Notes under the pieces: generated by a model | What the model was told of the DNA's origin: nothing | What the model saw: the letters and a program-made list of their open reading frames with translations, nothing else | Databases searched by the model: none | Virus record (IMG/VR): IMGVR_UViG_3300045993_000696 | Location: 1 to 21,759 of that record | DNA length: 21,759 nucleotides | Source of the DNA: a virus | Strand: one strand, 5' to 3' | Shown here: positions 442 to 21,647 of the stretch, in pieces | Layout: every line of letters starts with the position of its first letter | Position numbering within the stretch: the stretch's first letter is position 1 | Program-made: the position numbers and the translations under genes

Positions 442-698
442 TGTGGAGTGCAGAGGAAATGTCTGTTCAGATTTTGTTCATCGATATATTTGCTTACTGC
501 TATGTTATAACCGCTCCCCGCAGAAAGACACACAAAAAGCTGCATTAAATATGCTAGTTCTAGTGTGGTTATATCCTCAGAAGGCTTAAAATCATACTTA
601 AACCGTGATTCCTGATCATATATGGAAATGTTTGGGGAGACGAATGCCCGAGTAATAGTGTAATATGATTCTGATGGAATAGTAACTGTGTCATTCAT
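438..698 (-). CDS. Small protein of unknown function between uvsW and uvsY
   Basis: This gene encodes 86 residues starting MNDTVTIPSESYY. I chose the ATG at 698 over an upstream TTG/ATG-type extension because CAGGACG sits a suitable distance upstream and a minus-strand late promoter ends at 752. The extension would run through that promoter. The stop overlaps the uvsW start by four bases, so translation is probably coupled. No domain is recognised. The middle (LELAYLMQLFVCLSAG) is hydrophobic enough to be a buried helix but is short for a membrane span. T4 also has tiny open frames between uvsY and uvsW, but I cannot show homology to them. Confidence 0.7.
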   Translation of the reverse strand: MNDTVTIPSESYYTITRAFVSPNISIYDQESRFKYDFKPSEDITTLELAYLMQLFVCLSAGSGYNIAVSKYIDEQNLNRHFLCTPQ

Positions 699-751
699 AG
701 TATTACGTCCTGCATTTCTGCAGGTCTCAAATTTGTTATTAGATTTAAAAT

Positions 752-763
752 TATTTATAAATA
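752..763. promoter_or_regulatory. Overlapping divergent T4-type late promoters
   Basis: The bases TTATTTATAAATAA contain TATAAATA on the plus strand (756-763) and TATAAATA on the minus strand (759-752), sharing four bases. TATAAATA is the T4 late promoter octamer recognised by the gp55 sigma factor. The plus copy lies 33 bases before the GIY-YIG endonuclease start. The minus copy lies 54 bases before the 86-aa gene that leads into uvsW. Both spacings allow a short leader. Only one polymerase could use the site at a time. Confidence 0.6.
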
Positions 764-795
764 ACTTTAGTTGGATGATAGCAGGAAGGATATAC

Positions 796-1521
796 ATGAA
801 TAAGTATTTTACATATTGTCTTGGTGACCCAAGAAAACCGAATAATAAATATCCAGGCGGATATGAGCCCTTTTATATTGGTAAGGGTGCTGGGCGAAGA
901 ATAGATGACCATATTAGAGATGCTAAAAGTACTTCGAAAAATACACCAAAGTTAAACAAGATAAGAAAAATTTTTAGTGTGGGCTTAATTCCAGTGATTA
1001 CAATACTTAAAGATAATTTATCAAACATTGATGCTGAAAATTTAGAAATTTATTATATCAAATTATTTGGCAGATTAGATTTAGGAACAGGAATTTTAAC
1101 CAATCTTACCGATGGGGGTGATGGGACAATAGGATATAAAATTACTAATGAAACTAGAGCTAAGCTTTCAAAAATTACAAAACAGGCCCACATAGATGGT
1201 AAATTTGAAAATGCAAAAGATAAAATATCCGGCATACCCCGAGATAAAGTAACTAGAGCCAAAATAAAAAATACATTAACCGGAGTTAAACACACTCCTG
1301 AGCGGCGAAAAAATATAAGTGAAGCACGAAAAAAGTATTGCACTGAAATTTCCAATTTAACAAAATACAAAATTATTAATCCTGAAGGAAATGAATTTTT
1401 GATTATCTTTGGTAGATCAAATATTGAAATTTTAGGGTATGAAAAACTTTATCCTTCAATATTAAAAAATAGACCTCTACTTCACGGAAGATTTAAAGGA
1501 TGGCAAATGCTAAAGTATTGA
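796..1521 (+). CDS. GIY-YIG homing endonuclease (free-standing)
   Basis: This is the only plus-strand gene and encodes 241 residues. The start at 796 follows a strong AGGAAGGA ribosome site at 783-790, and upstream in-frame codons lie before the promoter. The N-terminal module has a degenerate GIY-YIG core: YFTYCL at 4-9, PFYIGKGAGRR at 25-35 with candidate catalytic Arg34/Arg35, and ENLEIYYIKLFG at 82-93 supplying the metal-binding Glu. The C-terminal half carries NUMOD3-like DNA-contact modules near 115-130 and 163-179. Such Seg-type enzymes cut related phage genomes and spread by repair. The gene is inserted against the grain between uvsY and the uvsW-proximal gene. Its last 12 bases overlap the end of uvsY head to head. 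The A/T-rich, lysine-rich coding sequence differs from its neighbours, which is consistent with mobility. Confidence 0.85.
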   Translation: MNKYFTYCLGDPRKPNNKYPGGYEPFYIGKGAGRRIDDHIRDAKSTSKNTPKLNKIRKIFSVGLIPVITILKDNLSNIDAENLEIYYIKLFGRLDLGTGILTNLTDGGDGTIGYKITNETRAKLSKITKQAHIDGKFENAKDKISGIPRDKVTRAKIKNTLTGVKHTPERRKNISEARKKYCTEISNLTKYKIINPEGNEFLIIFGRSNIEILGYEKLYPSILKNRPLLHGRFKGWQMLKY

Positions 1522-9323: not shown

Positions 9324-10202
9324 TTAAACTCCGATTGCTAACCATGTCCATAAACCAGTATTTCCATTTGTACCAGGTGTAATACTTGTTGTAGTGTAGG
9401 TTACTCCAAATTCACCTATGGCAGCACTGCCAGAATATCTTACTGCGACAGCAGAATAAATGGTGGAGAATGCAACAGGGAATGTTTGTGTTGCCCAACC
9501 AACTGGACCACTCCACTGAATTAACAATCCATTGCTTAGGCGTTGATAGCCCTTAACTGCTAAACTCGAAACTCCCAATCCGCTTGCTCCTGCTGGTCCG
9601 GTAGGACCTTGGGGACCAGTTGCACCTGTAGGACCAGCAACACTGCTAGCTGCGCCAGTTGCCCCAGTAGGACCCTGCGGACCTGTAGGACCCTGAGATC
9701 CAGTTGCCCCAGTAGGACCTTGAGGACCAGTAGGTCCAACAACACCTGTACTACTTCCAGGTACGCCCTGAGGACCTTGAGGGCCAGCCGGTCCGGCTAC
9801 AGTGCTGGCTGCGCCGGTAGGACCCTGAGGTCCTTGTGGACCCTGAGGTCCAGTTGCTCCAGCTACTCCAATAGATTTTATCCATCCATAACCAGGTGTT
9901 TCTGAGGTATGATAGACAGTAACACTTCCTGCAGTAGTAGGGTCAACACATACATAAAGAATATTTTCAGTTGTTTTAAACCATAACTGTCCTATCGTGG
10001 GATGGGCTGGTGGAGTTGTAGCAGCAAAATGCTCTAAAAGATGTAGAAAATTTTCTTGCTGAATTTCTCCATAGTTAACAACACCTTGTCCTGTGAGGAC
10101 TAAGGGTGAATGTGTAGTATCCGTAACCCCATCAGCAAGGGTAAATTGCGTCTTTCCTAAAGCGCTATTATTACTTGCCCAATCAATAATGAATGCTGTC
10201 AT
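9324..10202 (-). CDS. Tail fibre protein with collagen-like repeats
   Basis: This gene encodes 292 residues. Residues 44-86 ([18 protein letters not shown]...[17 protein letters not shown]) resemble a virion-attachment domain common in myovirus fibres (YGxxxxENFLxLLExFA, GQLWxxT). Residues 112-210 form a collagen-like Gly-X-Y shaft rich in GPTGPQ and GPTGAT triplets, broken by three Ala/Ser/Val spacers ([21 protein letters not shown]). From 217, [18 protein letters not shown]...FPVAFSTIY resembles the C-terminal tip domain of many fibres. It should trimerise and mediate host recognition at the tip. GGAG precedes the ATG, and a late promoter overlaps the terminase end upstream. Confidence 0.85.
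9573..9869 (-). repeat. DNA repeat tract encoding the collagen-like shaft
   Basis: Short imperfect nine-base units, seen on the plus strand as variants of GGACCTGTAGGACCTTGAGG, repeat through this stretch. They encode Gly-Pro-Thr-Gly-Pro-Gln triplets. The tract is prone to slippage or recombination that would change shaft length in nine-base steps without shifting frame. Confidence 0.8.
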
Positions 10203-10226: not shown

Positions 10227-10234
10227 TATTTATA
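10227..10234 (-). promoter_or_regulatory. T4-type late promoter for the tail fibre gene
   Basis: TATAAATA reads on the minus strand from 10234 to 10227, overlapping the terminase stop codon. It lies 24 bases before the fibre ATG, which leaves room for GGAG and a very short leader. Confidence 0.6.
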
Positions 10235-11795
10235 AGAAAGCCCATGGAACGGGCTCATCTCCAAATTGATCTGGATTTTCCTCAGGTTGCTGATCTGCAT
10301 CTGGGTCTACAGATTCATAAACTATCTTTTTAGCAGCTTCATCATAGGAAGCTAACCGTCCTAACACCTTCATAACAACTGCCATTGCCATAATCGCATC
10401 ATCGGTGCAGCCTTCTTTAGCTTGATAAGTATTATTAATGGCAATAAAGTTCTGAAGTTCATAGATGAGATATTCGGAATGAATTTTTATTCCGCTATTT
10501 CCCTTTTCAATTAAATTTTTGAACTGCATACAAGCAAGTAGCTTAGATTTTCCAGTTGTATAACATCCTAGGCGAGTTTTTGATTCATTGTAAAGTTCTG
10601 TTCCATCTAAGTAGATACCACCATCTGGGGTATCATCATTCTGAATCATGGCAACTAATGCTTCACCGACACCGTTACGTTCGAATGACCAGATGATTTC
10701 TGATCTGCCTTTCATTTCATCCGGCTGTCTAAGCAATTTAAATAACCATTTTAACTTAGCATAGATGAGTGGGATATGAACTGTGTTATTTCTAAATTCC
10801 GCAACCTGTTCCATAGACGGATATTCTACAACCTGAATAACTGTAAAGTCCTTACTATTGCCTGTAGCTGGGTCGACCCCAATCAAATAAGTCTTTCCTT
10901 TACCACCAAGCTTTTCTTTCCAGAAGTTGAAGCCCATATTTTGGTAAAGAGGTTTAGAGGACTTAACATAACTGAGCTTGAGCGAGTCCATCAACAGAGC
11001 GTCAGATGAAATGAACTCGCATAATACTTCTTGTCTAAAACCGATTGGTCCTAACTCACCCTGCATCTGTTTGATATATTCTTCACCGCGTTCTGGGTGT
11101 AGGCTCCAAGGGAAGAATAATGGCTTGAATGAATTCTGTTCTGCTATTGCGCCCCGCCACAAGGTAGCAAATAAATCTGTATCTCCATTAGGAGTAGAAG
11201 ATATAATAGCGGAACCGCCGGTAGATAACGTAGGAGATAACGATCGCCACATCTCTGTTTGAACACGCGGTGATATGAATGCCAACTCGTCTAGGTAAAG
11301 AATAGAGATTGATAAACCCCGTCCAGTCTTTGCTGTGGTTGCTTCAGATTTAATTCTTGAGCCGTTATCAAATTCAATATTGTGCTTGTTGTAATAACGG
11401 CAACCAGCTTTAAGCCAATGTGGAAGTTCTTCGTATGCAAATCGGATACGATCCATAATTTCCATAGCGTGGCTGTTATTCTTAGAAGCAATAACGATTG
11501 TCTGGTCTCTATGGAACATTGCGTACCATAATAGATACATTGAGATGGTTTGGGTCTTACCCATCTGACGGGATATTAGCGCGATAACCCGAGTAGAGTC
11601 TTGACACGCTCTAATTAGTTCTTCTTGAAAGGGATAAAGGTCGAATAAGATTCTGCCGCGTTTTGGATGCTGCAACCAAACATATTTTCGAATAAAATAA
11701 ACCGGATCATTTTGACACTTCACGAGCTCTTGAATAAGCTCGGGCGTATATTCCGATTCAGCGTGTGCACGCTTGATTAGTTCATTACCTGCCAT
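10230..11795 (-). CDS. 17: Large terminase subunit, gp17-type packaging motor
   Basis: This gene encodes 521 residues; T4 gp17 has 610, and the N-terminus here is shorter. The ATPase domain has Walker A SRQMGKT at 75-81 (T4 SRQLGKT), Walker B with catalytic Glu ILYLDELAFI at 165-174, and coupling motif SSTPNG at 199-204 (T4 TTTPNG). The nuclease domain shows Asp308 (LIGVDPATGNSKDF), Glu372 (SFERNGVGEAL) and Asp465/Asp466 (CTDDAIMAMAV), matching the T4 Asp401, Glu458 and Asp542 triad. It cuts concatemeric DNA and pumps it into the prohead. The C-terminus is an acidic tail (DPDADQQPEENPDQFGDEP). AAGGAA precedes the ATG. No small terminase gene is visible here. Confidence 0.93.
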   Translation of the reverse strand: MAGNELIKRAHAESEYTPELIQELVKCQNDPVYFIRKYVWLQHPKRGRILFDLYPFQEELIRACQDSTRVIALISRQMGKTQTISMYLLWYAMFHRDQTIVIASKNNSHAMEIMDRIRFAYEELPHWLKAGCRYYNKHNIEFDNGSRIKSEATTAKTGRGLSISILYLDELAFISPRVQTEMWRSLSPTLSTGGSAIISSTPNGDTDLFATLWRGAIAEQNSFKPLFFPWSLHPERGEEYIKQMQGELGPIGFRQEVLCEFISSDALLMDSLKLSYVKSSKPLYQNMGFNFWKEKLGGKGKTYLIGVDPATGNSKDFTVIQVVEYPSMEQVAEFRNNTVHIPLIYAKLKWLFKLLRQPDEMKGRSEIIWSFERNGVGEALVAMIQNDDTPDGGIYLDGTELYNESKTRLGCYTTGKSKLLACMQFKNLIEKGNSGIKIHSEYLIYELQNFIAINNTYQAKEGCTDDAIMAMAVVMKVLGRLASYDEAAKKIVYESVDPDADQQPEENPDQFGDEPVPWAFL

Positions 11796-11878: not shown

Positions 11879-12457
11879 TCAGGTCAAGTATACGGAAATT
11901 TCTTTTATAAGGTCTTCATGCTGAATTATTTCAAAGTGATTGGCATGAATATCTACTTGACGAGCATTAGCAATCGCTTTTTGAGATCGGATACTTACCA
12001 CCCCATCATTTTCTCTTATCATTATTGGGAGACTTCCTGACGTGCTTATGAATGCCAGATGATTTTTCCAAGAAACATTTGCTATTTCTTTAATGATGGT
12101 GGAGTTCGGACTGATGTCCCTGAGGACCTTATGTTTTGGGAAAATGAAACTTGCTCCCATTGCGGCACTACTTCCACCGAAGGGTGAAGAAATAGTTGCT
12201 ATCTTATCTACCTTCAATTCACCACGAGATGCTATCAATAGCGCTATGACCCCTCCCAAAGAATGCCCAATGATTGAGATTTTTGGGTATGCAAGTTCTT
12301 TAAGATGACCTAAGATAAAATCGTATGAATTCTCTATGCTCTGGAAACTATCATAAGCAATAAAAACTGCTTCATGGTCTGGGAGCTGTGAGTGTAGGTG
12401 GGTGAATATTCTTGGGCTACAATTAAACCCGTGAAGATAGACGATTGGGTGTTTCAT
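11879..12457 (-). CDS. Alpha/beta-hydrolase (lipase/esterase-like)
   Basis: This gene encodes 192 residues from the ATG at 12457. An in-frame TTG at 12496 would only add a basic, unalignable leader. The fold is clear: an N-terminal strand with the oxyanion motif PIVYLHGFN (4-12), the nucleophile elbow SIIGHSLGGVIALL (61-74) with Ser66, Asp151 in ENDGVVSIRSQ and His174 in HANHFEII complete a triad. Size and the NDGVV segment resemble small serine esterases or lipases. There is no signal peptide. The gene start lies inside the preceding gene (35-base overlap) without a good ribosome site, so coupling is likely. The substrate is unknown. Its place after the ART-like cluster suggests a late, possibly host-modifying role. 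Confidence 0.8.
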   Translation of the reverse strand: MKHPIVYLHGFNCSPRIFTHLHSQLPDHEAVFIAYDSFQSIENSYDFILGHLKELAYPKISIIGHSLGGVIALLIASRGELKVDKIATISSPFGGSSAAMGASFIFPKHKVLRDISPNSTIIKEIANVSWKNHLAFISTSGSLPIMIRENDGVVSIRSQKAIANARQVDIHANHFEIIQHEDLIKEISVYLT

Positions 12458-12698
12458 GAAGTATATTCGATTTTGATATTTTAATCTTTTGCGCAAAATC
12501 TAAATTGCGGCCAATAGTCATATGTCTAACTAACTCTTTCTTATAGAAAGCAACCTGTTGATTAGTAGGAGTAAAGTTGTCTTTAGTCTTACATCTATTT
12601 ATCTCATTAGCAACCATCATTTCAATCACCTCGTTGTAGTGATTTACTCTGTCGCTGGTAACAACAAATGCTGTTCGGTATGGGGTGTTATCAGACAT
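12423..12698 (-). CDS. Small protein of unknown function after the ART-like genes
   Basis: This gene encodes 91 residues beginning MSDNTPYRTAFVVTSDRVNHYNEV. The ATG overlaps the stop of the ART-like gene by eight bases (ATGTCTGA). A GTG start at 12752 would overlap by 62 bases and is less likely. It is mixed alpha/beta with a long basic helix region (NQQVAFYKKELVRHMTIGRNLDFAQKIK). No recognisable domain is present. The 3' end overlaps the hydrolase gene start. Confidence 0.6.
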   Translation of the reverse strand: MSDNTPYRTAFVVTSDRVNHYNEVIEMMVANEINRCKTKDNFTPTNQQVAFYKKELVRHMTIGRNLDFAQKIKISKSNILHETPNRLSSRV

Positions 12699-13503
12699 TT
12701 GCTTTTTGAAATTCTTTAAGGTGATTATAGAGAATAGCAATACATTTACCACCTATCCAAACTTCACTATTCTTTGCTGGTGGTTGATAGTTATTTGCTG
12801 TGAATAACTGAAATCCAGTTTTTGCTGGTGAGAATGCATCCCATATCATCGGCATAAAATTATCAAATACCTGTTCATCTGGTGGCTTGCTAGTAGTCTG
12901 CTTATACATAACTACTACCTTCTTAACTGCTGCTGGGTTTCTTTCTTTCAGCAACTTATCAAATTTCATAAAGCCTTCCATCGTCGGTTTAATTCCCAGC
13001 TCTTCCTCAAATGCCATATTAAATCCGTAAACATCGCTCTTAGCACCGAACAATTTTATCAGTGTTTTCCACATATCATTTCTATTAATAACACCAATTT
13101 TTACTCCATCGAGGGGGATAAGAGCATAGACATTATCCTTAGTATAAATGCCATGGTTGTTTTCCGCAAATCCTTCTGCAGTCGATTTACTTGTTGATGC
13201 TATAAAAGAGCGTGAGCGCTTTGGATAGTCCTTCATATCGGGGTGATTATCAAACAACACAGTGTAATGATTGGAAGTATTCTGACTTACGCGTTCAGTT
13301 TTTGATGGGTCAACGATTGCATATCCCGTTTCTCTAAGCGATGGTGCTATGGTTGTTTCGCCACGATAGAAACATATGCCATACTTTTTGTAAATGCTAC
13401 AGTCATCTTTTACAAGCCTAACAGCATTTTCCAAAGTCAAACCCTGAAATGTTGGTGCATTGCCAACTGCTGCTTCAGATAAAAATTCCTTAAAGCTTAG
13501 CAT
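12691..13503 (-). CDS. ADP-ribosyltransferase-like protein with capsid-targeting peptide (paralogue A)
   Basis: This gene encodes 270 residues from the ATG at 13503 (GAGGAAG upstream). It begins MLSFKEFLSE followed by AAVG, which fits a T4-like capsid-targeting peptide cut after L-x-E by the prohead protease. The body matches paralogues B and C. The motif order fits R-S-E ADP-ribosyltransferases: FYRGE with Arg47, SRSFIASTS with Ser103-Thr-Ser105, and a late Glu247 in KNSEVWIGGK. NHYTVLFDNHPDMKDYPKRS before the STS motif is nearly identical in all three. T4 Alt is a packaged, injected ART that modifies host RNA polymerase, so a similar role is plausible, but the target is unknown. The classical E-x-E is N-S-E here, so activity needs proof. 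Confidence 0.65.
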   Translation of the reverse strand: MLSFKEFLSEAAVGNAPTFQGLTLENAVRLVKDDCSIYKKYGICFYRGETTIAPSLRETGYAIVDPSKTERVSQNTSNHYTVLFDNHPDMKDYPKRSRSFIASTSKSTAEGFAENNHGIYTKDNVYALIPLDGVKIGVINRNDMWKTLIKLFGAKSDVYGFNMAFEEELGIKPTMEGFMKFDKLLKERNPAAVKKVVVMYKQTTSKPPDEQVFDNFMPMIWDAFSPAKTGFQLFTANNYQPPAKNSEVWIGGKCIAILYNHLKEFQKANV

Positions 13504-14275
13504 ATGCTTCCTCAAAATCATCTATCATTTTCATAGTTACGCACATGCATATCCCACTTACCCATACCTCATTATCATCTGCTAGTATTGGGAGAGTTGC
13601 TGGGGTATAGAATGCCATTCCGGTATTCTTAGGAGAGTATGCTTCCCAGATACTTTCCATAAAGTTATCTTTATACTTCAATCCTTCTGTTCCTAATTCT
13701 TGCTGAAGTTTTAGCATTGCAGATGCATTATTGTCTTTTAGTTTCTTATCGAAATCTAAAAATCCTTGGATAGTAGGTTCAATTCCCATCCACTTGAAAT
13801 ACTTGTTGAAGGTATTTATTTTACCTGTCTCACCAAAAAGTTTTATTTCGGTCATCCACATATCTTCTTTGGGGCAAACACCAATTTTTGTGCTGCTAGT
13901 CGGTATTACAACATACATCTCATGTCTCGAATCACCATATGTAAATCCCTTTGCTGTTTCATAATCAGCAGAAGCAATAAATGATTTCGATCTCTTTGGG
14001 AAGTTCGTCATCTCAGGGTGATTGTCGAAGATGACTGTATAATAGTTAGAAGTATTTTCGCTTTCACGAGAAGTAGCTGAAGTATCCACGACCCCAACAC
14101 CAGTCTTTATAAGTTCTGGCGGTAATCCATGTTCACCTCTATAGATAGGATTTCTGCCAGTAAAAGATGGACAATGCTTCTTTACGAACTCAGCTGCCTT
14201 TTCAATAGACACGCTTCTCCAATCTGGCTTAGCATCTACTGCTCGTTCTTGGATAAATTCTTTAAAGCTTATCAT
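13490..14275 (-). CDS. ADP-ribosyltransferase-like protein with capsid-targeting peptide (paralogue B)
   Basis: This gene encodes 261 residues beginning MISFKEFIQE, then RAVDAKPDW. PIYRGE gives Arg46, KSFIASADY sits at the STS position but has Ser102-Ala-Asp, and Glu236 lies in DDNEVWVSG. The stretch SRESENTSNYYTVIFDNHPEM is shared with A and C, and the C-terminal WEAYSPKNTGMAFYT is also conserved. The STS motif is degraded relative to A and C, so this copy may have changed specificity or lost activity. Its start forms ATGA with paralogue C and its end overlaps paralogue A by 14 bases, so the three are one translational unit. Confidence 0.63.
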   Translation of the reverse strand: MISFKEFIQERAVDAKPDWRSVSIEKAAEFVKKHCPSFTGRNPIYRGEHGLPPELIKTGVGVVDTSATSRESENTSNYYTVIFDNHPEMTNFPKRSKSFIASADYETAKGFTYGDSRHEMYVVIPTSSTKIGVCPKEDMWMTEIKLFGETGKINTFNKYFKWMGIEPTIQGFLDFDKKLKDNNASAMLKLQQELGTEGLKYKDNFMESIWEAYSPKNTGMAFYTPATLPILADDNEVWVSGICMCVTMKMIDDFEEAYAKL

Positions 14276-15063
14276 TTCATCGCACGTCTAAGTTGGTCCC
14301 ACATCTGCATAGTAATATACATTATCTTACCGCCAACCCATACCTCGGAAGTTTTACTGTTGCGTGGCATTGTCTTTGTAGTGTGAGCCGTGAAACCGGT
14401 TTTTGATGGGCTATATGCTTCAAAAACAAGTTTTAAAAAATTATCTGTCCATGACTTATTGCAAACATCTATGTCTAGACCATCTTTAAATCTTTCTATT
14501 GCATCTTCATTTCCGGCTTTCAATTCTTTATCGAATTTCTTAAAACTTTCAAGAGTTGGCCGTAATTTCATCCGAATAAATGAGTCATTGAATACACGAA
14601 TGCCCCAATATTCGTGGAACAAATCAATTTTAGTATCCCACATATCATCATTATTAACGAAGCCAATTTTTACACCATCAAACGGTATCATCACTAAAGT
14701 AGAATACATATCTGCAAATGCTTGAGCTCTAAATTTACTTGTTGAGGCAATGAAGGATTTTGAACGCTTTGGGAAATCCTTCATTGAAGGATTATTATCT
14801 AAAAGCATCGTATAATAGTTCATCGTGTTTTGACTTTCTCGGGTGGTCGCAGAAGTATCCACAGTTAAAAACCCTAGCGATTTAGCTCTGCGTGCCACTT
14901 CAGAAATTTCTCCACGATAAATTGGACTATCCTGTTTCAACATCCACAGTGCATCTTGACAGTGTTCATTAAGCATATCGATGGCTTGCTTAACTTCCAC
15001 TTCCTTGAAGTCTGGTTCTTTCCCGACTGCTTTTTCCTGAATAAATTCTTTAAAGCTTAGCAT
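14272..15063 (-). CDS. ADP-ribosyltransferase-like protein with capsid-targeting peptide (paralogue C)
   Basis: This gene encodes 263 residues beginning MLSFKEFIQE, then KAVGKEPDF. SPIYRGEISE gives Arg50, KSFIASTSK gives Ser107-Thr-Ser109, and Glu240 lies in KTSEVWVGGK. The TTRESQNTMNYYTMLLDNNPSMKDFPKRSKSF block matches the other copies. It is the first of three tandem copies. Its ribosome site AAGGAA (15076-15071) is made of the Lys-Glu codons of the LSFKEFL sequence that ends the preceding 72-aa gene. It is probably packaged into the head and processed after Glu10, although the next residue is Lys rather than the Ala, Gly or Ser preferred in T4. Confidence 0.65.
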   Translation of the reverse strand: MLSFKEFIQEKAVGKEPDFKEVEVKQAIDMLNEHCQDALWMLKQDSPIYRGEISEVARRAKSLGFLTVDTSATTRESQNTMNYYTMLLDNNPSMKDFPKRSKSFIASTSKFRAQAFADMYSTLVMIPFDGVKIGFVNNDDMWDTKIDLFHEYWGIRVFNDSFIRMKLRPTLESFKKFDKELKAGNEDAIERFKDGLDIDVCNKSWTDNFLKLVFEAYSPSKTGFTAHTTKTMPRNSKTSEVWVGGKIMYITMQMWDQLRRAMK

Positions 15064-15268
15064 TTAAAAATTCCTTGAATGATAAGTTCTCTTTTAAGCC
15101 CATCATCTTCTTAGCAATGCCCATTGTCAATGGCCAAAACTTACCATCACCCTCATCAACATCGTATTCTTTCTTTACGATACTTTTGGCCACGTGCCAA
15201 TAATGTTCGGCCTGACCATCCGAAATCTTTGCTTTCTTCGCAAGATGTTTGAGAGCTGCTTGGGGCAT
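15050..15268 (-). CDS. Small basic helical protein ending in the capsid-targeting motif
   Basis: This gene encodes 72 residues starting MPQAALKHLAKKAKISDGQAEHYWHVAKSIVKKE. The segment through KFWPLTMGIAKKMMGL is a small helical domain I associate with phage structural or head proteins (LAKKxGKSxxxxExxWxxAKxxxKK...FWxxxMGIxKKMLG), with no known function. The last residues are NLSFKEFLNAKL, which repeats the LSFKEFL signature found at the N-termini of the ART-like proteins but lacks the cleavage Glu. The stop falls inside the next gene, with 14 bases of overlap. GAGGATAA precedes the start and overlaps the stop of the 349-aa gene. Confidence 0.75.
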   Translation of the reverse strand: MPQAALKHLAKKAKISDGQAEHYWHVAKSIVKKEYDVDEGDGKFWPLTMGIAKKMMGLKENLSFKEFLNAKL

Positions 15269-15269
15269 T

Positions 15270-16319
15270 TTATCCTCTAGATAATTGTTTCCAGATAACT
15301 AAAGGCATAGAAACTATTTCTTTATTTCTTTGCATAAGACTAACTTTTTCACCTTCATTAAGCTCTACACTAAAGTCACCAGCCTTACCAAGAAGCTTTG
15401 GAAATTCCATATCAGTGTCATGAGCTTCAGTTAGCGGACATAATGTATCTGCTTCTGCAAAAGACATCATATCACCCTTGAACTCTGGGCAATAGCTTCC
15501 AGTTTTTGCCTTAGCATAATAAATCGCAATGCAGTTCTTGCCATCGTATGCACATAAAACACGAGCGCCATCAATAGCGGATTCATCATAGTCATTTGCA
15601 CTATCACTTACCTGTTCAAACTTACCGTAGTTTATTTTCTGAAAAGTATATTTGTCTTTCGATTCTTTAAGCTTTTTGTTAATAGCAAAGTATGCGGAAA
15701 CAAAGTCGCTTGGGAAATCTTCATCATAGCTAAAGCTGTATGAAGCAGACTTCTTACCTAAATCGGCAACTGCGATTTTATATCCAGCATCTAATACTTC
15801 TTTTTCCGTCTTAAGACCGGGCTTTACTTTTTTAGCGAGCTTTTCAGCATAGTTGCCACGATTAGCCTTTTCAGCTTTTTCTGCACCAGCCTCATCTTCC
15901 GATTCTTTCACCGGCTTTTGCTGCCAATCTTTATAGCCCATATTATATGCCTTGACATGCAAGTCATATGGTTGTTCTTTTGGCCAAGGAGCCTTCTTTG
16001 GCTTGCCAGCTAAAGCATGTTCTTTACCAAGGGCATATGCTTTGTCGTAGTCACCGGATTCATTAACACTTTCAGTTACTTCATATTCATCTTTAGGGAA
16101 ATAGTCTTTAACATATTCAGTAAGTTCAGAAGATGGGAGTTCTGCTGCCATTGTATCTGTATTCATAATACTTTTGACAATGAAGCTAACTGCTTGAGCA
16201 TACGTAGAGCCTTCAGGGATATCGGCATTGCGACAGAAGTCTTCTACCGTATCCATAATAGCATTTTTCATTTGCCCTTCTTTGAGGGCTTTCATTTGGA
16301 CTAGTTGTTTGAGTAACAT
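15270..16319 (-). CDS. Putative head-internal processed protein, companion of the 1325-aa protein
   Basis: This gene encodes 349 residues with AAAGGAATA before the ATG. I do not recognise a catalytic domain. Sites fitting T4 prohead protease specificity occur at LKE-G (13-15), VTE-S, VKE-S, LKE-S, LTE-A and LNE-G. The N-terminus MLLKQLVQMKALKEG could be a propeptide. KAYALGKEHALAGKPKKAPWPKEQPYDLHVKAYNMGYKDW is a repeat-like helical motif known to me from small phage proteins. EDEAGAEKAEKANRGNYAEKLAKKVKPG is a charged linker. The C-terminal 100 residues look folded (YSFSYDEDFPSDFVSAYFAINKKL, GARVLCAYDGKNCIAIYYAK). Its position directly after the large modular protein and before the targeted ART-like genes suggests a prohead role. 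Confidence 0.7.
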   Translation of the reverse strand: MLLKQLVQMKALKEGQMKNAIMDTVEDFCRNADIPEGSTYAQAVSFIVKSIMNTDTMAAELPSSELTEYVKDYFPKDEYEVTESVNESGDYDKAYALGKEHALAGKPKKAPWPKEQPYDLHVKAYNMGYKDWQQKPVKESEDEAGAEKAEKANRGNYAEKLAKKVKPGLKTEKEVLDAGYKIAVADLGKKSASYSFSYDEDFPSDFVSAYFAINKKLKESKDKYTFQKINYGKFEQVSDSANDYDESAIDGARVLCAYDGKNCIAIYYAKAKTGSYCPEFKGDMMSFAEADTLCPLTEAHDTDMEFPKLLGKAGDFSVELNEGEKVSLMQRNKEIVSMPLVIWKQLSRG

Positions 16320-16320
16320 A

Positions 16321-19300
16321 TTATTCCTTTGAAGATTTTACAAGCTTAATGTCTTTAGCTTTGAGTTGAACGGATTTCATACCAAAATTTGGCTGAGTGG
16401 ATTTTTCATCATGGTCATAGTCAATGGTAAAAGTCTTTGGAGAATCTCCTGCTGGACCAGTTCTGATTTCACCAATGAAACCTTCTTTACCGATGCAGTC
16501 TTTAGGACCAGAAACAATCTTTACTTTTGCACCGATTTTGTATGGGCTAAAGCCTTCATCAAGCTTGCCATCTTTACGGGTCAAGTCAATCTTGTATTGT
16601 GTCTTAGCATGGTTCCAAATCTTCTGAACAGTTAGCAAATGTTGTCTGCGTTCTCTATCACTCTTAGCCATATCGACCCAGCCTAAAGCATCTTTGTAGT
16701 CTTTACGAAGCTTAGCAATATTTTCTTCCTTGCCTTCTTCGACTGGGACAACCTTAGCAGTTCCAACCATATGGTTCTTATTGCCAATCTTTTCAGTCTT
16801 CTTGATATTTTCTAGCTTGCTTTCTTCTTCCTTGCGCTTCTTAGCAATTTCGTATGCTACTGAACCTTTGCGAGGAAATCCACCATGCTCAACAACCTTC
16901 TTTGGTGCTTTACGACCAGCATTAAGCGCAACTTCATTAGCAATCTCTTCAGAGAAATCTTCACTCGTCAGCATGTTGATGATGTCTTCATAGTCCATGT
17001 CAGCATCGGCATTGCGGTTGAAGTATGCTTGAGCCTTCTTCAACTCGGACGGCTTAATTGCTTCTGAAAGAACAACACCCTTCTCTTTGTCTTGGTCCCA
17101 AACACCATACGAACGGTCTTCACCTGGGACTTCAGCAGAGATAGTATCCTTACCACCTTCCATACGACCCTTGAACTTAATCTTCTTAGCTTGTTGAGGG
17201 TAAGAGTTTAATACTGCAGCTTTCCAGTCATCAAAGTCAGTGAATGCTTCTTCCTTCATCACTTCTTTTATTTCAAAGTGATTTACTGGGCGACCATTTA
17301 CAGTGTAAAATCCTGAACCCTTATCATACTTGGTAATCTTACCAACTCCGGACCCATCCTTTTGTGGTGGATCCATTTCAAATTTTACAACTTGTCCGAC
17401 TTTGTATTTTGGTTCTTTTGGAGCTGCACCCATTATTTTAGCAGCTAGCTTTTGCCCGAATGTTTCTTCCTTAGCTTCAACAGTCTTTATCTTTAATAAA
17501 TCTGGGTTCTTATTAATGATTGCCTTCATTTCATTTTCTGGCAATGTTGAAAAACTATCACCGGATTTCGCAGCTAATGCATCTGCCTTCTTCATGTTGA
17601 TGAGCTTACATTGCTCAGCATGATCTAAAGTAGCAAATCCAAACTCACCATGCTTTTCTTCAGCTATATTGTTAAGCATGTCCCAAGGAGATAGATTTTT
17701 ACCCTCAACTGTCTTAATCATATTGTGATAGAGACCTGTTGGATCAAGTTTATACTTGCCACTCTTCTCAGCATATTTACCCTTCTTCCATTTCTTATTG
17801 AACTCATCGCGGGTCATAGCACCAGCCATCATACGGTCAAAGTCCATTTTCTCTTTAGCTTTTAATCTTGTAGCATTCTTTTCATCTTTTTGCTGTTGTT
17901 GCCATGCTGCGTGGTCAGCATCAGTCATAGGCTTCTTCAAGGCCATATTCTTTGGCCATGGCGTATTCGTTGATTCCTTAACTTCTAACTTTTCGATATC
18001 ATAATCAATATCATAATCTCGTTTGAGTGCTCGGACTATTGCTTTTGGGGCACCCGCAATAATACTCTGTTTACCGTTGGCTTTATCTGTAACTACAATA
18101 GCACGGGACCCAGGATATGCATTGTCCTTAACAAGCTTAATGCTATATTTTTCTACAGATTCCTTAACTTGCTTTTTTACTGTCACGCTGAACCCAGTGT
18201 CCCCAAAGCGTTTGACCGAAAATCCAGCAGCTCTCAAGAGCTTCATCAAGTCAGTGCCTGCAGCTTGATCAACTGCATCATATTCGATCGTGTCTTCATC
18301 GCTGTCTTTGCCGATGTTGATAGGGAATCCGATAACAACACAACGACATGTCTTGACCTTCTTACCAGCAAATGCTTCGAAGTTAGCCAATGCAGACTTG
18401 GTAAAATCTACCTTGACTGCACCTTCAGCAACTTTCTCTGGGAATTTAGTGATAAACAATTTAGCACCCTTAACTTCACTTTCAATACCAAGTGGCTTAA
18501 GCAACTTTTGAATTTTCAAAGCATATCCACCATAAGAAGTTTGGATATAGTTTTTATCTACAACGGTAGCGTGTTTAAATGGAACATTTTTATTAGCCCA
18601 CTTATCTAGCTGAGCCATAGATGATGGGGCTGCACCTTCGCTAACTGATTCTTTGTATGTCTTACGGATTCTAAATCCAAAACCGCTCCAAGCAGAACCA
18701 TCAGTTGTGTCGAACACAAAATCATAACCGTCTGAAGTCTTGATAACAAAGTTATCGCCTTTAACTGGTTGTCCAGTAATATAACCAACCTCTTTTCTCA
18801 AATCATTTACCATCGCTTTGAATGTAGCATGAGGGATTTGACCACCAACTTTAACAAACAAATCAAACTTAGACGATGACCCGTATGAACCATGAACAGT
18901 AGTTCCATGAGCAAGTTCAATCATACCATACTTGATAGCCTTGAATGCCATCGTGTTTGGTGCTGATGGGACTGATGTTTGTCCAGCCTTAGCATGCGAT
19001 TGATAATCGTCAACGATATCTTGAAGAGTATCTTTAAGAGTCGATCTGAGAATGGTTGCTGTTAAAGTTGATTTTTTTGGTTTTTGCGACATTGTTTCTT
19101 GTTCATCACCATCATCTGAATCCCAGGTATTTTTATCATTTGGATTAAATACTGCTTCTTTAAGCTCACCAAAGTTATTGCGAACATATTCTTCTGCTTC
19201 TTCTGCAGTATCGATAGGGCCTTCGATGTCCATACCATGGCGATAATCTTTATGAATCCAGCTCATGATATCGGATGGCTTCAAGTAGCTCATGTAGGAA

Positions 19301-20298
19301 GTTCCCCACTTATAATCTGCTTTACCCTTGTATGGTTTTTCGTGCCATTTGCCACCGTCGGACTTCGTGACTAAACCAATCCAAGACTGTTGTTCGTCTT
19401 CATCGTAGAATGCTACGTAGAAAGTATCTTGTTCGTCTTGGTCAAAGATTCCATCTTCGTCATCTTCATCGCTGTCTTCTTCTCTCTTATCTGCATCTTC
19501 ATCAGACTCTTTGGTAACATCAGAAGAGTGGAATGAATATTCCTTGTTGTCTTTGAAGAGCTTAACGACTACAAACTTCTTATCTGTTCCAAACTTTGTG
19601 ATTTCGCCGGTGTCATCTTGATGCTCTACATTACCCGTGATAGCAACAACATCGCCTACTTCGCATTTGTCTGCTGTAGGGCCAATATCTTCGCGACCTT
19701 CCGTAATAATGCTCTCATACAAATCCATATTGTCCATCAAAAATGCTAGCACTTCTTTAGCGAACTTTGGAGCTGCAGCTTTTGCTTTCTTAGCGGTCTT
19801 GCTAGCGCCATAACCGGTGACAGCAAAGGTTGCTGTATCAGTAATTATCTTCAATGCTTGTGGCTTAAAATCGCCAATAGACTTTACCTTGGCCCGCTTC
19901 ATTTCCTTCTTGATATTGTCTGCAAGTTCAGCAGCATAGGTGTCATGATTGTAAGCATTGTCGATAATGTCATACAAGTCATCTTCATCTACAATCTTGT
20001 TTCTAAGCAACCACGATTCAAAATCGGTCGGTTCATTCACTGCTTCTGTAACAACAGATTCATTAACTTCACGCCACTTACCATTGTTGTAAGAACCGAT
20101 GGTTTCGTCATCATCGTACCAATCTGATACATAAAATTGTCCATTGTTCTTATTCTTATTGATGTGTTGAACAACTCCACGAGCAGCACTAATGCTTTTA
20201 GCGGTCTTATGTGCTCGAAGCAGGTCAGCTTGCATCTTATTTGACTTAGCAAGGTCAGAATCTTCAGACAATTTCAAAAGTTCTTGAGATAGTTTCAT
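16321..20298 (-). CDS. Giant modular protein, putative capsid-internal polyprotein
   Basis: This gene encodes 1325 residues, by far the largest here, with CGGAG before the ATG. I do not recognise the whole protein. It looks like a chain of small domains joined by charged linkers. KOW/SH3-like barrels lie near 212-262 (CEVGDVVAITG), 964-1012 (YKVGQVVKFE) and 1252-1320 (PYKIGAKVKIVSG). A very acidic linker lies at 263-292, and a DFDDWKAAVLNSYPQQAKKIKFKG domain at 1021-1079. Sites of the T4 prohead protease type, [LIV]-x-E before A/G/S, occur at residues 85, 200, 381, 554, 625, 713, 775, 1079 and 1248, mostly at module borders. The start MKLSQELLKLSE may be a targeting peptide. I infer a packaged precursor cut into several peptides; a scaffold-like role is an alternative. 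Confidence 0.7.
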   Translation of the reverse strand: MKLSQELLKLSEDSDLAKSNKMQADLLRAHKTAKSISAARGVVQHINKNKNNGQFYVSDWYDDDETIGSYNNGKWREVNESVVTEAVNEPTDFESWLLRNKIVDEDDLYDIIDNAYNHDTYAAELADNIKKEMKRAKVKSIGDFKPQALKIITDTATFAVTGYGASKTAKKAKAAAPKFAKEVLAFLMDNMDLYESIITEGREDIGPTADKCEVGDVVAITGNVEHQDDTGEITKFGTDKKFVVVKLFKDNKEYSFHSSDVTKESDEDADKREEDSDEDDEDGIFDQDEQDTFYVAFYDEDEQQSWIGLVTKSDGGKWHEKPYKGKADYKWGTSYMSYLKPSDIMSWIHKDYRHGMDIEGPIDTAEEAEEYVRNNFGELKEAVFNPNDKNTWDSDDGDEQETMSQKPKKSTLTATILRSTLKDTLQDIVDDYQSHAKAGQTSVPSAPNTMAFKAIKYGMIELAHGTTVHGSYGSSSKFDLFVKVGGQIPHATFKAMVNDLRKEVGYITGQPVKGDNFVIKTSDGYDFVFDTTDGSAWSGFGFRIRKTYKESVSEGAAPSSMAQLDKWANKNVPFKHATVVDKNYIQTSYGGYALKIQKLLKPLGIESEVKGAKLFITKFPEKVAEGAVKVDFTKSALANFEAFAGKKVKTCRCVVIGFPINIGKDSDEDTIEYDAVDQAAGTDLMKLLRAAGFSVKRFGDTGFSVTVKKQVKESVEKYSIKLVKDNAYPGSRAIVVTDKANGKQSIIAGAPKAIVRALKRDYDIDYDIEKLEVKESTNTPWPKNMALKKPMTDADHAAWQQQQKDEKNATRLKAKEKMDFDRMMAGAMTRDEFNKKWKKGKYAEKSGKYKLDPTGLYHNMIKTVEGKNLSPWDMLNNIAEEKHGEFGFATLDHAEQCKLINMKKADALAAKSGDSFSTLPENEMKAIINKNPDLLKIKTVEAKEETFGQKLAAKIMGAAPKEPKYKVGQVVKFEMDPPQKDGSGVGKITKYDKGSGFYTVNGRPVNHFEIKEVMKEEAFTDFDDWKAAVLNSYPQQAKKIKFKGRMEGGKDTISAEVPGEDRSYGVWDQDKEKGVVLSEAIKPSELKKAQAYFNRNADADMDYEDIINMLTSEDFSEEIANEVALNAGRKAPKKVVEHGGFPRKGSVAYEIAKKRKEEESKLENIKKTEKIGNKNHMVGTAKVVPVEEGKEENIAKLRKDYKDALGWVDMAKSDRERRQHLLTVQKIWNHAKTQYKIDLTRKDGKLDEGFSPYKIGAKVKIVSGPKDCIGKEGFIGEIRTGPAGDSPKTFTIDYDHDEKSTQPNFGMKSVQLKAKDIKLVKSSKE

Positions 20299-20323
20299 GT
20301 AATTGGTCTCCGTTACGATAGTA

Positions 20324-20331
20324 TATTTATC
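20324..20331 (-). promoter_or_regulatory. Variant late promoter ahead of the 1325-aa gene
   Basis: GATAAATA reads on the minus strand from 20331 to 20324, one base off the T4 late octamer and 25 bases before the ATG. It lies in the only gap (57 bases) within this block, where a promoter would be expected. Confidence 0.4.
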
Positions 20332-20355
20332 GTTTATCTTAAATCAGGTAATATT

Positions 20356-21000
20356 TTATAATGAATGTATGAAATCTTCCATCTCTTCACTCTTCCAGAC
20401 AGCACCATACAAGCTAAACTGATAAAATCTACTACACTTAAACATTATTTCCCCTTCGGCTTTAATAGCATCCACTAAATCAGTGTTGTGATACCAATCT
20501 GCAGCGTCCATGCTTTTGATAAGTGCGTTTGCAGCGAGTTCATTTTTTTCATCGTATGATATTTTATTATCTACATCTACTGCATTTATCCTCCACCTTT
20601 GATGATTCAGCGCGATGGTCAAATCATAAAGGTCTGGGTCCGAGCAACTAACCCATTCAAACTTACCAATGGGGAAAATAATATCGATCGGTTGAACCCC
20701 AGAATATGTTTGGGCAGTATCCTTTCTACCAGTAGCAAACATCCAATTTCTAACTGGTGCCCCAAACTTTTTAGTAAAGAAATCATTAAGAAGAGTGTGG
20801 GCGATTTTAGGTGTATTACGTGGTTCTGTTCTACCTTTCCAAGCAGTGATTTCCCAATCCTTAGTTCCTGCAGGCTGTCCTCGATACATTAGATATTTGC
20901 CCGCACTTCCCTTAAGTTGGTCTAAAGTAAAAGCACAGTCTGTCTTAAACTTTTCCAAGTTAAACTTACTGCCTTCAGTCAGGAATTCTTTGAATCTCAT
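20356..21000 (-). CDS. ADP-ribosyltransferase-like protein with capsid-targeting peptide (short subfamily, Arg type)
   Basis: This gene encodes 214 residues beginning MRFKEFLTE, then GSKF, an ideal T4-type L-x-E/G cleavage site. YLMYRGQP places Arg40 like the first ART motif. NWMFATGRKDTAQTY (85-99) sits where S-T-S is expected. AEGEIMFKCSRFYQF (181-195) supplies a proper E-x-E (Glu182, Glu184) on the last core strand. The order and spacing fit a mono-ADP-ribosyltransferase better than any other fold I can think of. The neighbouring gene is a paralogue sharing EPR-[ND]T, RNW-[ML]-F, IFPIGKF-[ED]-W and EIM motifs. The start forms ATGA with that gene. A role as an injected host-modifying enzyme is inferred by analogy with T4 Alt. 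Confidence 0.6.
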   Translation of the reverse strand: MRFKEFLTEGSKFNLEKFKTDCAFTLDQLKGSAGKYLMYRGQPAGTKDWEITAWKGRTEPRNTPKIAHTLLNDFFTKKFGAPVRNWMFATGRKDTAQTYSGVQPIDIIFPIGKFEWVSCSDPDLYDLTIALNHQRWRINAVDVDNKISYDEKNELAANALIKSMDAADWYHNTDLVDAIKAEGEIMFKCSRFYQFSLYGAVWKSEEMEDFIHSL

Positions 21001-21647
21001 TTGCGTTCTTTCAGATACAATTTAATTTTATGGAGGATTGGAGATGAGGCAGATGAATTCAACGTATTCACAGCATAAAATTTATCGCAGCGAATCATTA
21101 TTTCATTCTTAGATTTTAGACACTTATCTAAATCGTTATCGTATCTCCACTCCATTTTGTTTAATTTGGCGGTGGCATCATAGATTGCTTTCATTTTTAT
21201 TTCGCCAAATGTAAGCCCAGTAGGATTCTTTTGATTCGCACTCATATAATCTCTATTGATGAGAGCAATAAAATTTGTCATATCACGTGTCTCAGGGTCA
21301 AGACAACATATCCAATCAAACTTGCCTATCGGGAAAATCGCAACTGGATAGTCATTTGCGTAGTAATTTGCATCATGAAAATCACTGGTGGTGAAGAGCC
21401 AGTTTCTTGCTTCAGCACCGAATTTTCCTTTGAGGAATTTATTCATTACCTTGTGTTGATTAGGATCTGTATCTCTAGGTTCAGAACGTTCATGCCAGGT
21501 TCTAATATCAAATGTTTCAGGGGAGTCCTGTGAGCCGTGAAATAGAAAATGTTCGCCATCTAATCTATCTAGGACATAGGCACAATCTACCTTGAATTTT
21601 TCAAAGTCAAATTCTTTATCCTCTTTAAGGAATTCTTTGAATCTCAT
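20997..21647 (-). CDS. ADP-ribosyltransferase-like protein with capsid-targeting peptide (short subfamily, His type)
   Basis: This gene encodes 216 residues beginning MRFKEFLKE, then DKEF. It aligns along its length with the next gene (EPRDT, RNWLFTTS, VAIFPIGKFDW, NEIMIRCDKFY). At the first motif it has FLFHGSQ, with His37 in place of the Arg of YRGQ. H-G-S/T is the signature of the other ART branch (diphtheria toxin and PARP, the H-Y-E group), so this may be a real change of active-site type or simply a dead copy. The second motif is FTTS (85-88), closer to S-T-S than its neighbour. The candidate Glu is 182, in K-N-E. No strong ribosome site is visible, and the start overlaps the upstream stop (ATGA). 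Confidence 0.58.
   Translation of the reverse strand: MRFKEFLKEDKEFDFEKFKVDCAYVLDRLDGEHFLFHGSQDSPETFDIRTWHERSEPRDTDPNQHKVMNKFLKGKFGAEARNWLFTTSDFHDANYYANDYPVAIFPIGKFDWICCLDPETRDMTNFIALINRDYMSANQKNPTGLTFGEIKMKAIYDATAKLNKMEWRYDNDLDKCLKSKNEIMIRCDKFYAVNTLNSSASSPILHKIKLYLKERK

What the first reader, a model, noticed from the sequence alone, without database searches (positions are those of the whole stretch)
12691..21647. A family of five ART-like proteins each carrying a T4-like capsid-targeting peptide
Seen: five proteins start with MLSFKEFLSE, MISFKEFIQE, MLSFKEFIQE, MRFKEFLTE and MRFKEFLKE. Known: T4 internal proteins start with about MKTYQEFIAE, which targets them to the prohead and is cut by gp21 after L/I-x-E, and T4 Alt is a packaged ADP-ribosyltransferase. 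Inferred: this phage packages and injects a set of diversified ARTs, with more members than the single Alt of T4. The combination of one shared address tag with two ART subfamilies would be a modular effector delivery system.
Basis: partly seen in the sequence, partly recalled or inferred. Interest (0 to 1): 0.88.

Follow-up and report, generated by a model that had tools for sequence, protein, structure and literature searches.

The report
Tagged, probably packaged phage enzyme family
A T4-related phage carries five related enzyme-like proteins that share a short address tag like the one phage T4 uses to load proteins into its head, so the phage probably injects them into bacteria with its DNA; related phages carry many more tagged proteins.

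Summary
In detail: five of 29 window ORFs carry the N-terminal peptide M-x(1,2)-F-K-E-F-[LI]-x-E, and these five form one superfamily with two subfamilies. All four positions mapped in T4 as targeting or processing determinants match. Models of both subfamilies resemble ADP-ribosyltransferases, with low scores; a putative catalytic Glu is invariant in 74 of 74 aligned members. In relatives not found through the tag, 105 of 201 ART-like ORFs carry an F-K-type tag against 54 of 916 neighbours. A- and B-type proteins of one phage share the tag (52% identity, 28% between phages) but not the residues behind it. Codons vary synonymously. Tagged non-ART proteins include Zeta-type and other kinases, a GNAT and amidoligases. 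Atu_ph07 homologues lie in a cluster where 29 of 46 products were found in virions; which ones I could not read. Packaging, cleavage and NAD activity are not shown. Best reading: an injected effector family addressed by a T4-type capsid-targeting peptide; a new variant of a known kind.

The parts
12691..13503 (-). ArtA1, ART-like protein of subfamily A (270 aa from the tag Met), tag MLSFKEFLSE
   Evidence: phrog_12810 E 4.8e-27, scanned with one extra residue before the Met; profile of alignment A1, E 2e-83
13474..13503 (-). tag of ArtA1 (10 codons)
13490..14275 (-). ArtA2, ART-like protein of subfamily A (261 aa), tag MISFKEFIQE; AlphaFold model mean pLDDT 91.3, residues 1-13 under 50
   Evidence: (phrog_12810 E 4.3e-31)
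14246..14275 (-). tag of ArtA2 (10 codons)
14272..15063 (-). ArtA3, ART-like protein of subfamily A (263 aa), tag MLSFKEFIQE
   Evidence: phrog_12810 E 1.5e-29
15034..15063 (-). tag of ArtA3 (10 codons)
15050..15268 (-). 72-aa protein ending in a tag-like LSFKEFL; in relatives the same domain is fused in frame through the tag to an A-type ART-like protein
20356..21000 (-). ArtB1, ART-like protein of subfamily B (214 aa), tag MRFKEFLTE
   Evidence: phrog_11975 E 7.9e-16, phrog_15932 E 2e-11
20974..21000 (-). tag of ArtB1 (9 codons)
20997..21647 (-). ArtB2, ART-like protein of subfamily B (216 aa), tag MRFKEFLKE; AlphaFold model mean pLDDT 93.6, first 10 residues mean 55
   Evidence: (phrog_11975 E 1.3e-17, phrog_15932 E 3.5e-16)
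21621..21647 (-). tag of ArtB2 (9 codons)
16321..20298 (-). 1325-aa protein between the two ART-like groups; homologues of very different length in relatives; function unknown; context only
10230..11795 (-). terminase large subunit, T4 gp17 type; best listed hits are jumbo phages; context only

Best explanation
The five genes encode a diversified family of ADP-ribosyltransferase-fold enzymes that this T4-superfamily (probably jumbo) phage loads into its prohead and injects with its DNA. The first 9-10 residues act as a capsid-targeting sequence: they bind the scaffolding core, and the prohead protease then cuts after the [LI]-x-E Glu, freeing the enzyme inside the head. In the new host the enzymes would use NAD+ to modify host take-over or defence targets before phage genes are expressed. 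Shown by sequence: the shared tag, its match to the mapped T4 determinants, its occurrence with synonymous codon change, its phage-specific matching across two subfamilies, a likely ART fold with an invariant Glu, tandem arrays in relatives. Inferred: scaffold binding, cleavage, presence in virions, injection, catalysis, targets.
For: Tag: T4 IPIII work puts targeting mainly at residues 4 and 7 and processing at 8 and 10 (PMC9026906, passages); the window tags have F, F, L or I, E there, the B tags in the same register but one residue shorter. T4 IPI starts MKTFKEF, sharing F-K-E-F with the window's tags. F-K-type tag on 105 of 201 ART-like ORFs against 54 of 916 others in loci found without the tag. 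A-against-B pairs among 182 tagged members: tag identity 0.516 within a locus group (187 pairs), 0.281 between groups (8094 pairs); next 12 residues 0.078 and 0.070; 0 of 2000 label permutations reach the difference. 143 F-K tags have 136 distinct 21-mers. The tag is the low-confidence end of both models. ART fold: model of ArtA2, 34 of 50 VIA rows are structures I recognise from their titles as ARTs (many are repeats of the same few proteins), 3 more by recall, 12 are not, and the top row (2aua, Z 6.6) is of unknown function; the rest reach Z 4.2. Model of ArtB2: top three of 10 rows are the rifampin ART Arr (Z 5.0, 4.7, 3.7). Motifs: A R46 33 of 38, E236 38 of 38; B R or H at residue 37 in 35 of 36, E182 36 of 36. 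Among 233 T4 ORFs (150 of 169 kb) the known ART ModB is the best match of the profiles of alignments A1 (E 9e-4), A2 (0.09) and A8 (0.05), and third for A7 (0.16). Atu_ph07: 11 neighbouring ART-like genes, all with a tag-like start M[RK][WL]x[QD]L, are gp53-gp63, inside CDS 31-76, of which 29 products were found in virions by ESI-MS/MS (PMC6102473, passages; numbering).
Against: No direct virion or N-terminus data for any of these proteins; the Atu_ph07 table that names the 131 virion proteins could not be read, so gp53-gp63 may be among the 17 of 46 not found. Foldseek alone gave no PDB match below E 0.001 for either model, all VIA Z values are under 8, which that tool says may mean only a common arrangement, and for the B model 5 or 6 of 10 rows are unrelated folds. 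No Pfam ART family matched the five. The first Glu of ExE is mostly lost. 45 of 227 unique ART-like ORFs match none of three tag patterns, and the loosest pattern set also hits 161 of 916 non-ART ORFs and about 20 of 201 shuffled ART-like ORFs. The window holds no capsid, scaffold or protease gene that I recognised, so tag-scaffold matching cannot be tested in this phage.
Confidence: 0.62

Rival explanations
1. The proteins are packaged through the tag, but the ART fold is used without ADP-ribose transfer: as binding proteins or inhibitors of host defence nucleases, in the way T4 IPI-III inhibit GmrSD enzymes, or as NAD glycohydrolases.
For: First Glu of ExE mostly missing (kept in 5 of 38 and 4 of 36); T4 Ip1-3 are packaged inhibitors that share no sequence beyond the leader (PMC12373910, passages); paralogues are strongly diverged (33-44% identity within the window's subfamilies; 26-43%-type sets with Atu_ph07).
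Against: The putative catalytic Glu is kept in 74 of 74 aligned members and the R/H position in 68 of 74 (33 R of 38; 27 R and 8 H of 36), which inert binders would not need; an NADase would keep them, so that half of the rival is not hurt.
Confidence: 0.22
2. The N-terminal peptide is not a capsid tag but a different sorting or interaction signal, for example to the tail, the membrane or a phage-made compartment.
Against: Match to all four mapped T4 determinants, including the cleavage Glu; T4 IPI starts MKTFKEF; ART-like genes about 1-2 kb from the terminase gene in the window and in SCTP-2, though in Atu_ph07 they are about 30 kb away; Atu_ph07 array inside a virion-protein cluster.
Confidence: 0.12
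3. The shared 5' ends are a DNA-level feature (translational coupling or recombination sites) and the peptide has no function.
For: ART-like genes are tightly packed: 98 of 212 close same-strand pairs overlap by 4 bases (overlapping loci are counted more than once), and in the window the tag DNA of ArtA3 and of ArtA1 supplies the stop codon of the gene before.
Against: 143 F-K tags have 136 different 21-mers; at the positions whose residue the search pattern fixed, synonymous codons are mixed (TTC 74, TTT 69; AAA 108, AAG 35; GAA 99, GAG 44). Tag flavours match within but not between phages.
Confidence: 0.03

Closest known systems
T4 internal proteins IPI, IPII, IPIII with capsid-targeting sequence (CTS)
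   Same: Short N-terminal peptide with the same determinants, on different cargo; T-even relatives have at least 10 Ips, many found by the signal (PMC12373910, passages); PMC9026906 suggests the CTS as an evolutionary way to package various proteins (passages).
   Different: T4 Ip1-3 are inhibitors that share only the leader; here the cargo is a large family of ART-like proteins in tandem arrays, other enzyme families carry the tag in relatives, and the tag flavour differs from phage to phage.
T4 Alt
   Same: ART carried in the head (40 copies in the table of PMC9026906) and injected to modify host proteins.
   Different: One 682-aa protein with another N-terminus; among the best-listed T4 hits of the profiles ModB appears, Alt does not; here 214-270 aa proteins, five in 9 kb.
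Packaged ARTs of myoviruses, and polyvalent proteins (PMC9503650, PMC5512222)
   Same: ARTs, protein kinases and GNATs proposed to be injected; ARTs near terminase and head genes; phage G with at least 10 ARTs (passages).
   Different: There effectors are fused into one polypeptide, or to MuF or portal; here each is a separate protein with its own address tag. The term 'targeting sequence' does not occur in either main text.
Agrobacterium phage Atu_ph07 gp53-gp63 and the Salicola phage SCTP-2 array (genes 213-219)
   Same: Homologous proteins in tagged tandem arrays, annotated as hypothetical.
   Different: Other tag flavours; Atu_ph07 mixes A and B types in one array, with a B-A double protein and an A-Zeta kinase fusion.

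Membership tests
T4-type CTS-bearing internal (head) proteins | N-terminal peptide of about 10 residues with determinants at T4 positions 4, 7 (targeting), 8 and 10 (processing) | tested here: met
   F / F / L or I / E in 5 of 5; positions from PMC9026906, sequences
T4-type CTS-bearing internal (head) proteins | Same peptide on different proteins of one phage | tested here: met
   A-against-B tag identity 0.516 within, 0.281 between locus groups; Zeta-type kinase, other kinase, GNAT and amidoligase carriers in relatives. In the window itself only the five ART-like proteins carry the full tag
T4-type CTS-bearing internal (head) proteins | Protein present in the virion | tested here: inconclusive
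   Atu_ph07 homologues gp53-63 lie in CDS 31-76, 29 of 46 found in virions; which ones not readable
T4-type CTS-bearing internal (head) proteins | Peptide cut off by the prohead protease after Glu | not testable with these tools
   needs N-terminal mass spectrometry
ADP-ribosyltransferase superfamily | ART fold, subfamily A | tested here: met
   34 of 50 VIA rows ARTs by title, 3 more by recall, 12 not, top row of unknown function; Z 6.6 then 4.2 and lower. Weak: Foldseek alone not significant
ADP-ribosyltransferase superfamily | ART fold, subfamily B | tested here: inconclusive
   top three of 10 VIA rows Arr (Z 5.0, 4.7, 3.7), pertussis toxin at 2.3, an anti-CRISPR (6kyf) that I recall as an ART at 2.5, the other five unrelated; Foldseek not significant. 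Distant kinship to A: both profiles hit 10 of 11 Atu_ph07 proteins at E 1e-6 or better, tag columns included and one of the ten a double protein
ADP-ribosyltransferase superfamily | R/H in the first core strand, S/T in the second, catalytic Glu | tested here: met
   A: R46 33 of 38, S98 36 of 38, E236 38 of 38; B: R/H 35 of 36, S/T at 87 29 of 36, E182 36 of 36; that these are the catalytic positions is inferred from recalled ART motifs
ADP-ribosyltransferase superfamily | NAD-dependent activity | not testable with these tools
   needs enzymology
T4 Alt/ModA/ModB clade | Sequence kinship | tested here: inconclusive
   ModB is the top of 233 T4 ORFs for three of four profiles and third for the fourth, best E 9e-4, alignment mostly the YRG region
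T4 Alt/ModA/ModB clade | Glu two residues before the catalytic Glu (ExE, recalled as the arginine-specific motif) | tested here: not met
   present in 5 of 38 A and 4 of 36 B members; absent from ArtA2 and ArtB2 and from ArtA1 and ArtA3; ArtB1 has EGE
Polyvalent proteins | Two or more different domains in one polypeptide | tested here: not met
   the five window proteins are single globular domains by length and model of two; some relatives are fusions (Atu_ph07 gp53, ART-like + Zeta_toxin E 1.5e-14)

The most novel reading that the evidence does not exclude
T4-superfamily jumbo phages run a tag-addressed effector delivery system: a phage-specific peptide, matched to that phage's own scaffold and protease, sits on ten or more separate proteins (ART-like arrays, Zeta-type kinases, a protein kinase, GNATs, amidoligases; in a 642-kb phage also a lysozyme and an RNA ligase). 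New cargo is gained by acquiring the tag, perhaps by recombination at tag DNA, and the tag lets one list the injected proteins of a phage from sequence alone.
Probability: 0.5. Interest if true: 0.78.

Novelty: new variant of a known kind. Interest (0 to 1): 0.63.

Why it matters
Most jumbo-phage proteins have no known role, and it is rarely known which of them enter the host with the DNA. A tag that can be read from sequence would turn that into a testable list, here headed by a large unstudied family of ART-like proteins. The phage-specific match of the tag across two diverged subfamilies also offers a way to study how a scaffold recognises its cargo, and a source of capsid-loading tags beyond T4's.

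Tried and rejected
Sequence search for solved relatives: none for the profile of alignment A1; four weak, unrelated rows for alignment A2. Pfam: no ART family for the five. Near-identical DNA in 50,697 phage records: no match. Single-protein search of viral contigs with ArtA3: no relative.

Idea that the 1325-aa neighbour is a polyprotein cut by the prohead protease: [LIVF]-x-E occurs 23 times, shuffles give 21.1 (355 of 1000 reach it), so rejected on this measure; the 349-aa neighbour has 10 against 6.1 (62 of 1000).

DNA-element explanation of the tag: disfavoured. TATAAATA (T4 late promoter core, recalled) occurs 5 times against 1.5 expected, but none directly before the ART-like genes. Sigma-70-like sites were not above chance (33 against 35.9). 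No Rfam match, no tRNA.

A strict tag pattern made from the Atu_ph07 array, tried at each Met of the first 45 residues, finds 26 of 812 ORFs (200 shuffles: mean 1.9, maximum 7); 11 of the 26 are the array itself and some of the other 15 look like chance, so I give no cargo number for that phage. The three-pattern set used is loose: on the tag-independent loci it hits 158 of 201 ART-like ORFs, 161 of 916 others and about 20 of 201 shuffled ones, so I rely on the F-K pattern.

Limits: members of alignments A7 and A8 were chosen because they match a tag pattern (35 of 58 and 34 of 69 non-redundant candidates, plus the window's three and two), so their tag columns are not independent evidence. Phages were told apart as groups of loci that share an identical ORF (59 groups); two groups can still be one phage, which works against the difference seen. 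Loci overlap, so locus and gene-pair counts are not counts of phages. A family missing from a VIA list is not evidence.

Literature: ten searches showed, in listings and the passages opened, no paper that describes this tag on ART families of jumbo phages. Only open-licence full texts were searched; two papers on phage SPN3US that hold both 'capsid targeting' and 'jumbo phage' were not opened. No paper was read whole; PMC6102473 was seen as outline, abstract and passages, PMC11242549 as passages and its tables section, the others as passages.


Full report
NAMES. ArtA1, ArtA2, ArtA3, ArtB1, ArtB2 are the five window proteins; 'alignment A1' to 'alignment A8' are the session's protein alignments.

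WHAT IS THERE. The window is a 21,759-base IMG/VR virus record and no more of its genome is held. It has a gp17-type terminase; the best listed of 2441 matching records are jumbo phages such as PA5oct, XacN1, Stenotrophomonas phage CM1 and Sinorhizobium phage Phosso, at 39.5-41.7% identity. On the - strand lie, in transcription order, ArtB2 and ArtB1, a 1325-aa and a 349-aa protein, a 72-aa protein, ArtA3, ArtA2, ArtA1, then a hydrolase-like gene and the terminase. The A proteins match phrog_12810 (E 5e-27 to 4e-31) and the B proteins phrog_11975 and phrog_15932, all of unknown function.

THE TAG. The tags are MLSFKEFLSE, MISFKEFIQE, MLSFKEFIQE, MRFKEFLTE and MRFKEFLKE. In T4, IPII and IPIII start MKTYQEFIAE and IPI starts MKTFKEF. 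In IPIII, targeting depends mainly on residues 4 and 7 and processing on 8 and 10 (PMC9026906, passages); all five window tags have F, F, then L or I, then E in that register. In both AlphaFold models the tag is the low-confidence end: residues 1-13 under pLDDT 50 in ArtA2 and a mean of 55 for the first ten of ArtB2, in models of mean 91.3 and 93.6.

RELATIVES. tblastn with two window and two Atu_ph07 proteins against 50,697 phage records finds relatives only in Atu_ph07 (two records of it), SCTP-2 and two uncultured huge phages. Atu_ph07 has eleven neighbouring A- and B-type genes, ten starting like MRWHQLTE and one MRLFQLLE, including a B-A double protein and an A-type protein with a Zeta_toxin domain. 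SCTP-2 has a B-type array about 1.6 kb from its terminase with MKINDLLKE-like starts. In IMG/VR, 102 loci gave, with the phage loci and the window, 227 unique ART-like ORFs in 59 locus groups; 182 match one of three tag patterns, of which the loosest has a background of about one in ten, and 45 do not. 66 of 106 loci with an ART-like ORF have close same-strand neighbours of the family, up to 11 per locus (loci overlap).

TESTS OF THE TAG. (1) In loci found through body motifs, not through the tag, 105 of 201 unique ART-like ORFs and 54 of 916 other ORFs carry an F-K-type tag; shuffles of a slightly larger set of 214 ART-like ORFs give 1.6. (2) Comparing A-type with B-type proteins, which are distant relatives, tag identity is 0.516 within a locus group (187 pairs) and 0.281 between groups (8094 pairs), while the next 12 residues give 0.078 and 0.070; none of 2000 label permutations reaches the difference. 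The tag therefore goes with the phage, not with the subfamily. (3) 143 F-K tags are written in 136 different 21-mers, with synonymous codons mixed. (4) 58 of 979 non-ART ORFs of the IMG/VR loci and the window also have the tag, shuffles 6.1. Ten of the 58 were scanned: a Zeta_toxin-type kinase (PF06414, E 3.8e-13; similar P-loop proteins recur among the 58), a protein matching phrog_15752 (protein kinase, inhibitor of host transcription, 1.6e-10; I recall this as the T7 0.7 type), two amidoligases (4.5e-7, 1.2e-10), a GNAT (2.6e-5), an ART-PolyVal-like protein below Pfam's cut-off (2.9e-6), an AAA protein; three gave nothing informative.

THE 72-AA PROTEIN. ORF 15050-15268 ends LSFKEFLNAKL. 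In relatives its domain is fused in frame to an A-type protein with the tag between them, of the form GLKE-SxSFKEFLxE-ART. In the window the two tags stand back to back in different frames, and the DNA of the ArtA3 tag supplies the last codons and the stop of the 72-aa ORF. This is what recombination at tag DNA might leave, but I did not test that.

IS IT AN ART? For the ArtA2 model, VIA's top row is 2aua (Z 6.6, unknown function). Rows 2 and 3 are complexes of Rhs toxins that I recall as ARTs, rows 4-11 are PARP1, PARP10, diphtheria toxin and DarT (Z 4.0 to 3.4). Of 50 rows I count 34 ARTs by title, 3 more by recall, 12 others; many ART rows repeat the same few proteins. For the ArtB2 model the top three of 10 rows are Arr; five others are unrelated. 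Foldseek itself found nothing significant in the PDB for either model; the A model's 27 hits below E 0.001 in the viral library are phage proteins without a function name in the table, apart from one named for a Zeta toxin domain and one called chorismate mutase-like, and include Atu_ph07 proteins. The Glu is invariant in 38 of 38 and 36 of 36, the R/H position is kept in 33 (R) of 38 and 35 (27 R, 8 H) of 36; the Glu two places before is present in only 5 and 4. Among 233 T4 ORFs, ModB, a known ART, is the top hit for three of four profiles and third for the fourth, all weak. I take the fold as likely, better supported for A than for B, and the chemistry as open.

VIRION EVIDENCE. Atu_ph07 virions gave 131 proteins by ESI-MS/MS; CDS 31-76 holds 29 of them, only two predicted structural (PMC6102473, passages). 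With IF3 as the first CDS, ClpX as gp2, the topoisomerases as gp4-5 and the helicase-primase as gp70, as the paper numbers them, the ART-like array is gp53-gp63 and lies inside that cluster. The table of names was out of reach, so this is circumstantial.

KNOWN AND NEW. Known: T4 CTS and its cargo, including at least ten Ips in T-even phages, many found by their signal (PMC12373910, passages; PMC3012670, passages); packaged Alt; the proposal that ARTs of myoviruses are often packaged (PMC9503650, abstract and passages). New as far as the searches listed under Tried and rejected go: tagged tandem families of ART-like proteins in T4-superfamily jumbo phages, with a tag flavour that goes with the phage and is shared by diverged subfamilies and by other enzyme families. 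I file it as a new variant of a known kind.

Noticed in passing
L008, L124, L125 (LR756502, 642-kb uncultured phage, 440001-540000): 8 of 102 ORFs of 110 aa or more start with a T4-like [KR]..[FY]xx[FY]..E peptide (300 shuffles: mean 0.42, maximum 3); the same pattern gives 0 of 43 in a stretch of LR756508 and 1 of 148 in T4. Proteins with tag-like starts there include a lysozyme (PF00959, 4e-23) and a T4 Rnl1-type RNA ligase (2e-20).
   Followed up: partly
L007:4766-12690 (LR756508): The two ORFs that flank two tagged ART-like genes read like two parts of one family B DNA polymerase with intein-like stretches, as if the ART cassette sits inside a split polymerase gene (recalled motifs).
   Followed up: no
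window 16321-20298 and 15270-16319: The 1325-aa and 349-aa proteins have homologues of very different length in loci of the relatives; no excess of protease-like sites in the larger one.
   Followed up: partly
window 11879-12496: Alpha/beta-hydrolase-like protein (HGxN motif, recalled) near the A genes has eight distinct homologues in other ART-bearing loci.
   Followed up: no
window 752-763, 4510, 10227, 11852: TATAAATA, recalled as the T4 late promoter core, occurs 5 times against 1.5 expected, including upstream of the terminase, of the collagen-like protein and of a gp32-like gene (gene names other than terminase from recall).
   Followed up: partly
window 688-1521: A + strand ORF among mostly - strand genes reads like a GIY-YIG homing endonuclease (recalled motif).
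   Followed up: no
window 9324-10202: Collagen-like G-x-y repeats in a probable tail fibre protein just downstream of the terminase (role recalled).
   Followed up: no
L004:3169-4257 (Atu_ph07 gp63): The tagged 362-aa protein has about 120 extra N-terminal residues that look like a GNAT domain before a B-type ART-like domain (recalled).
   Followed up: no
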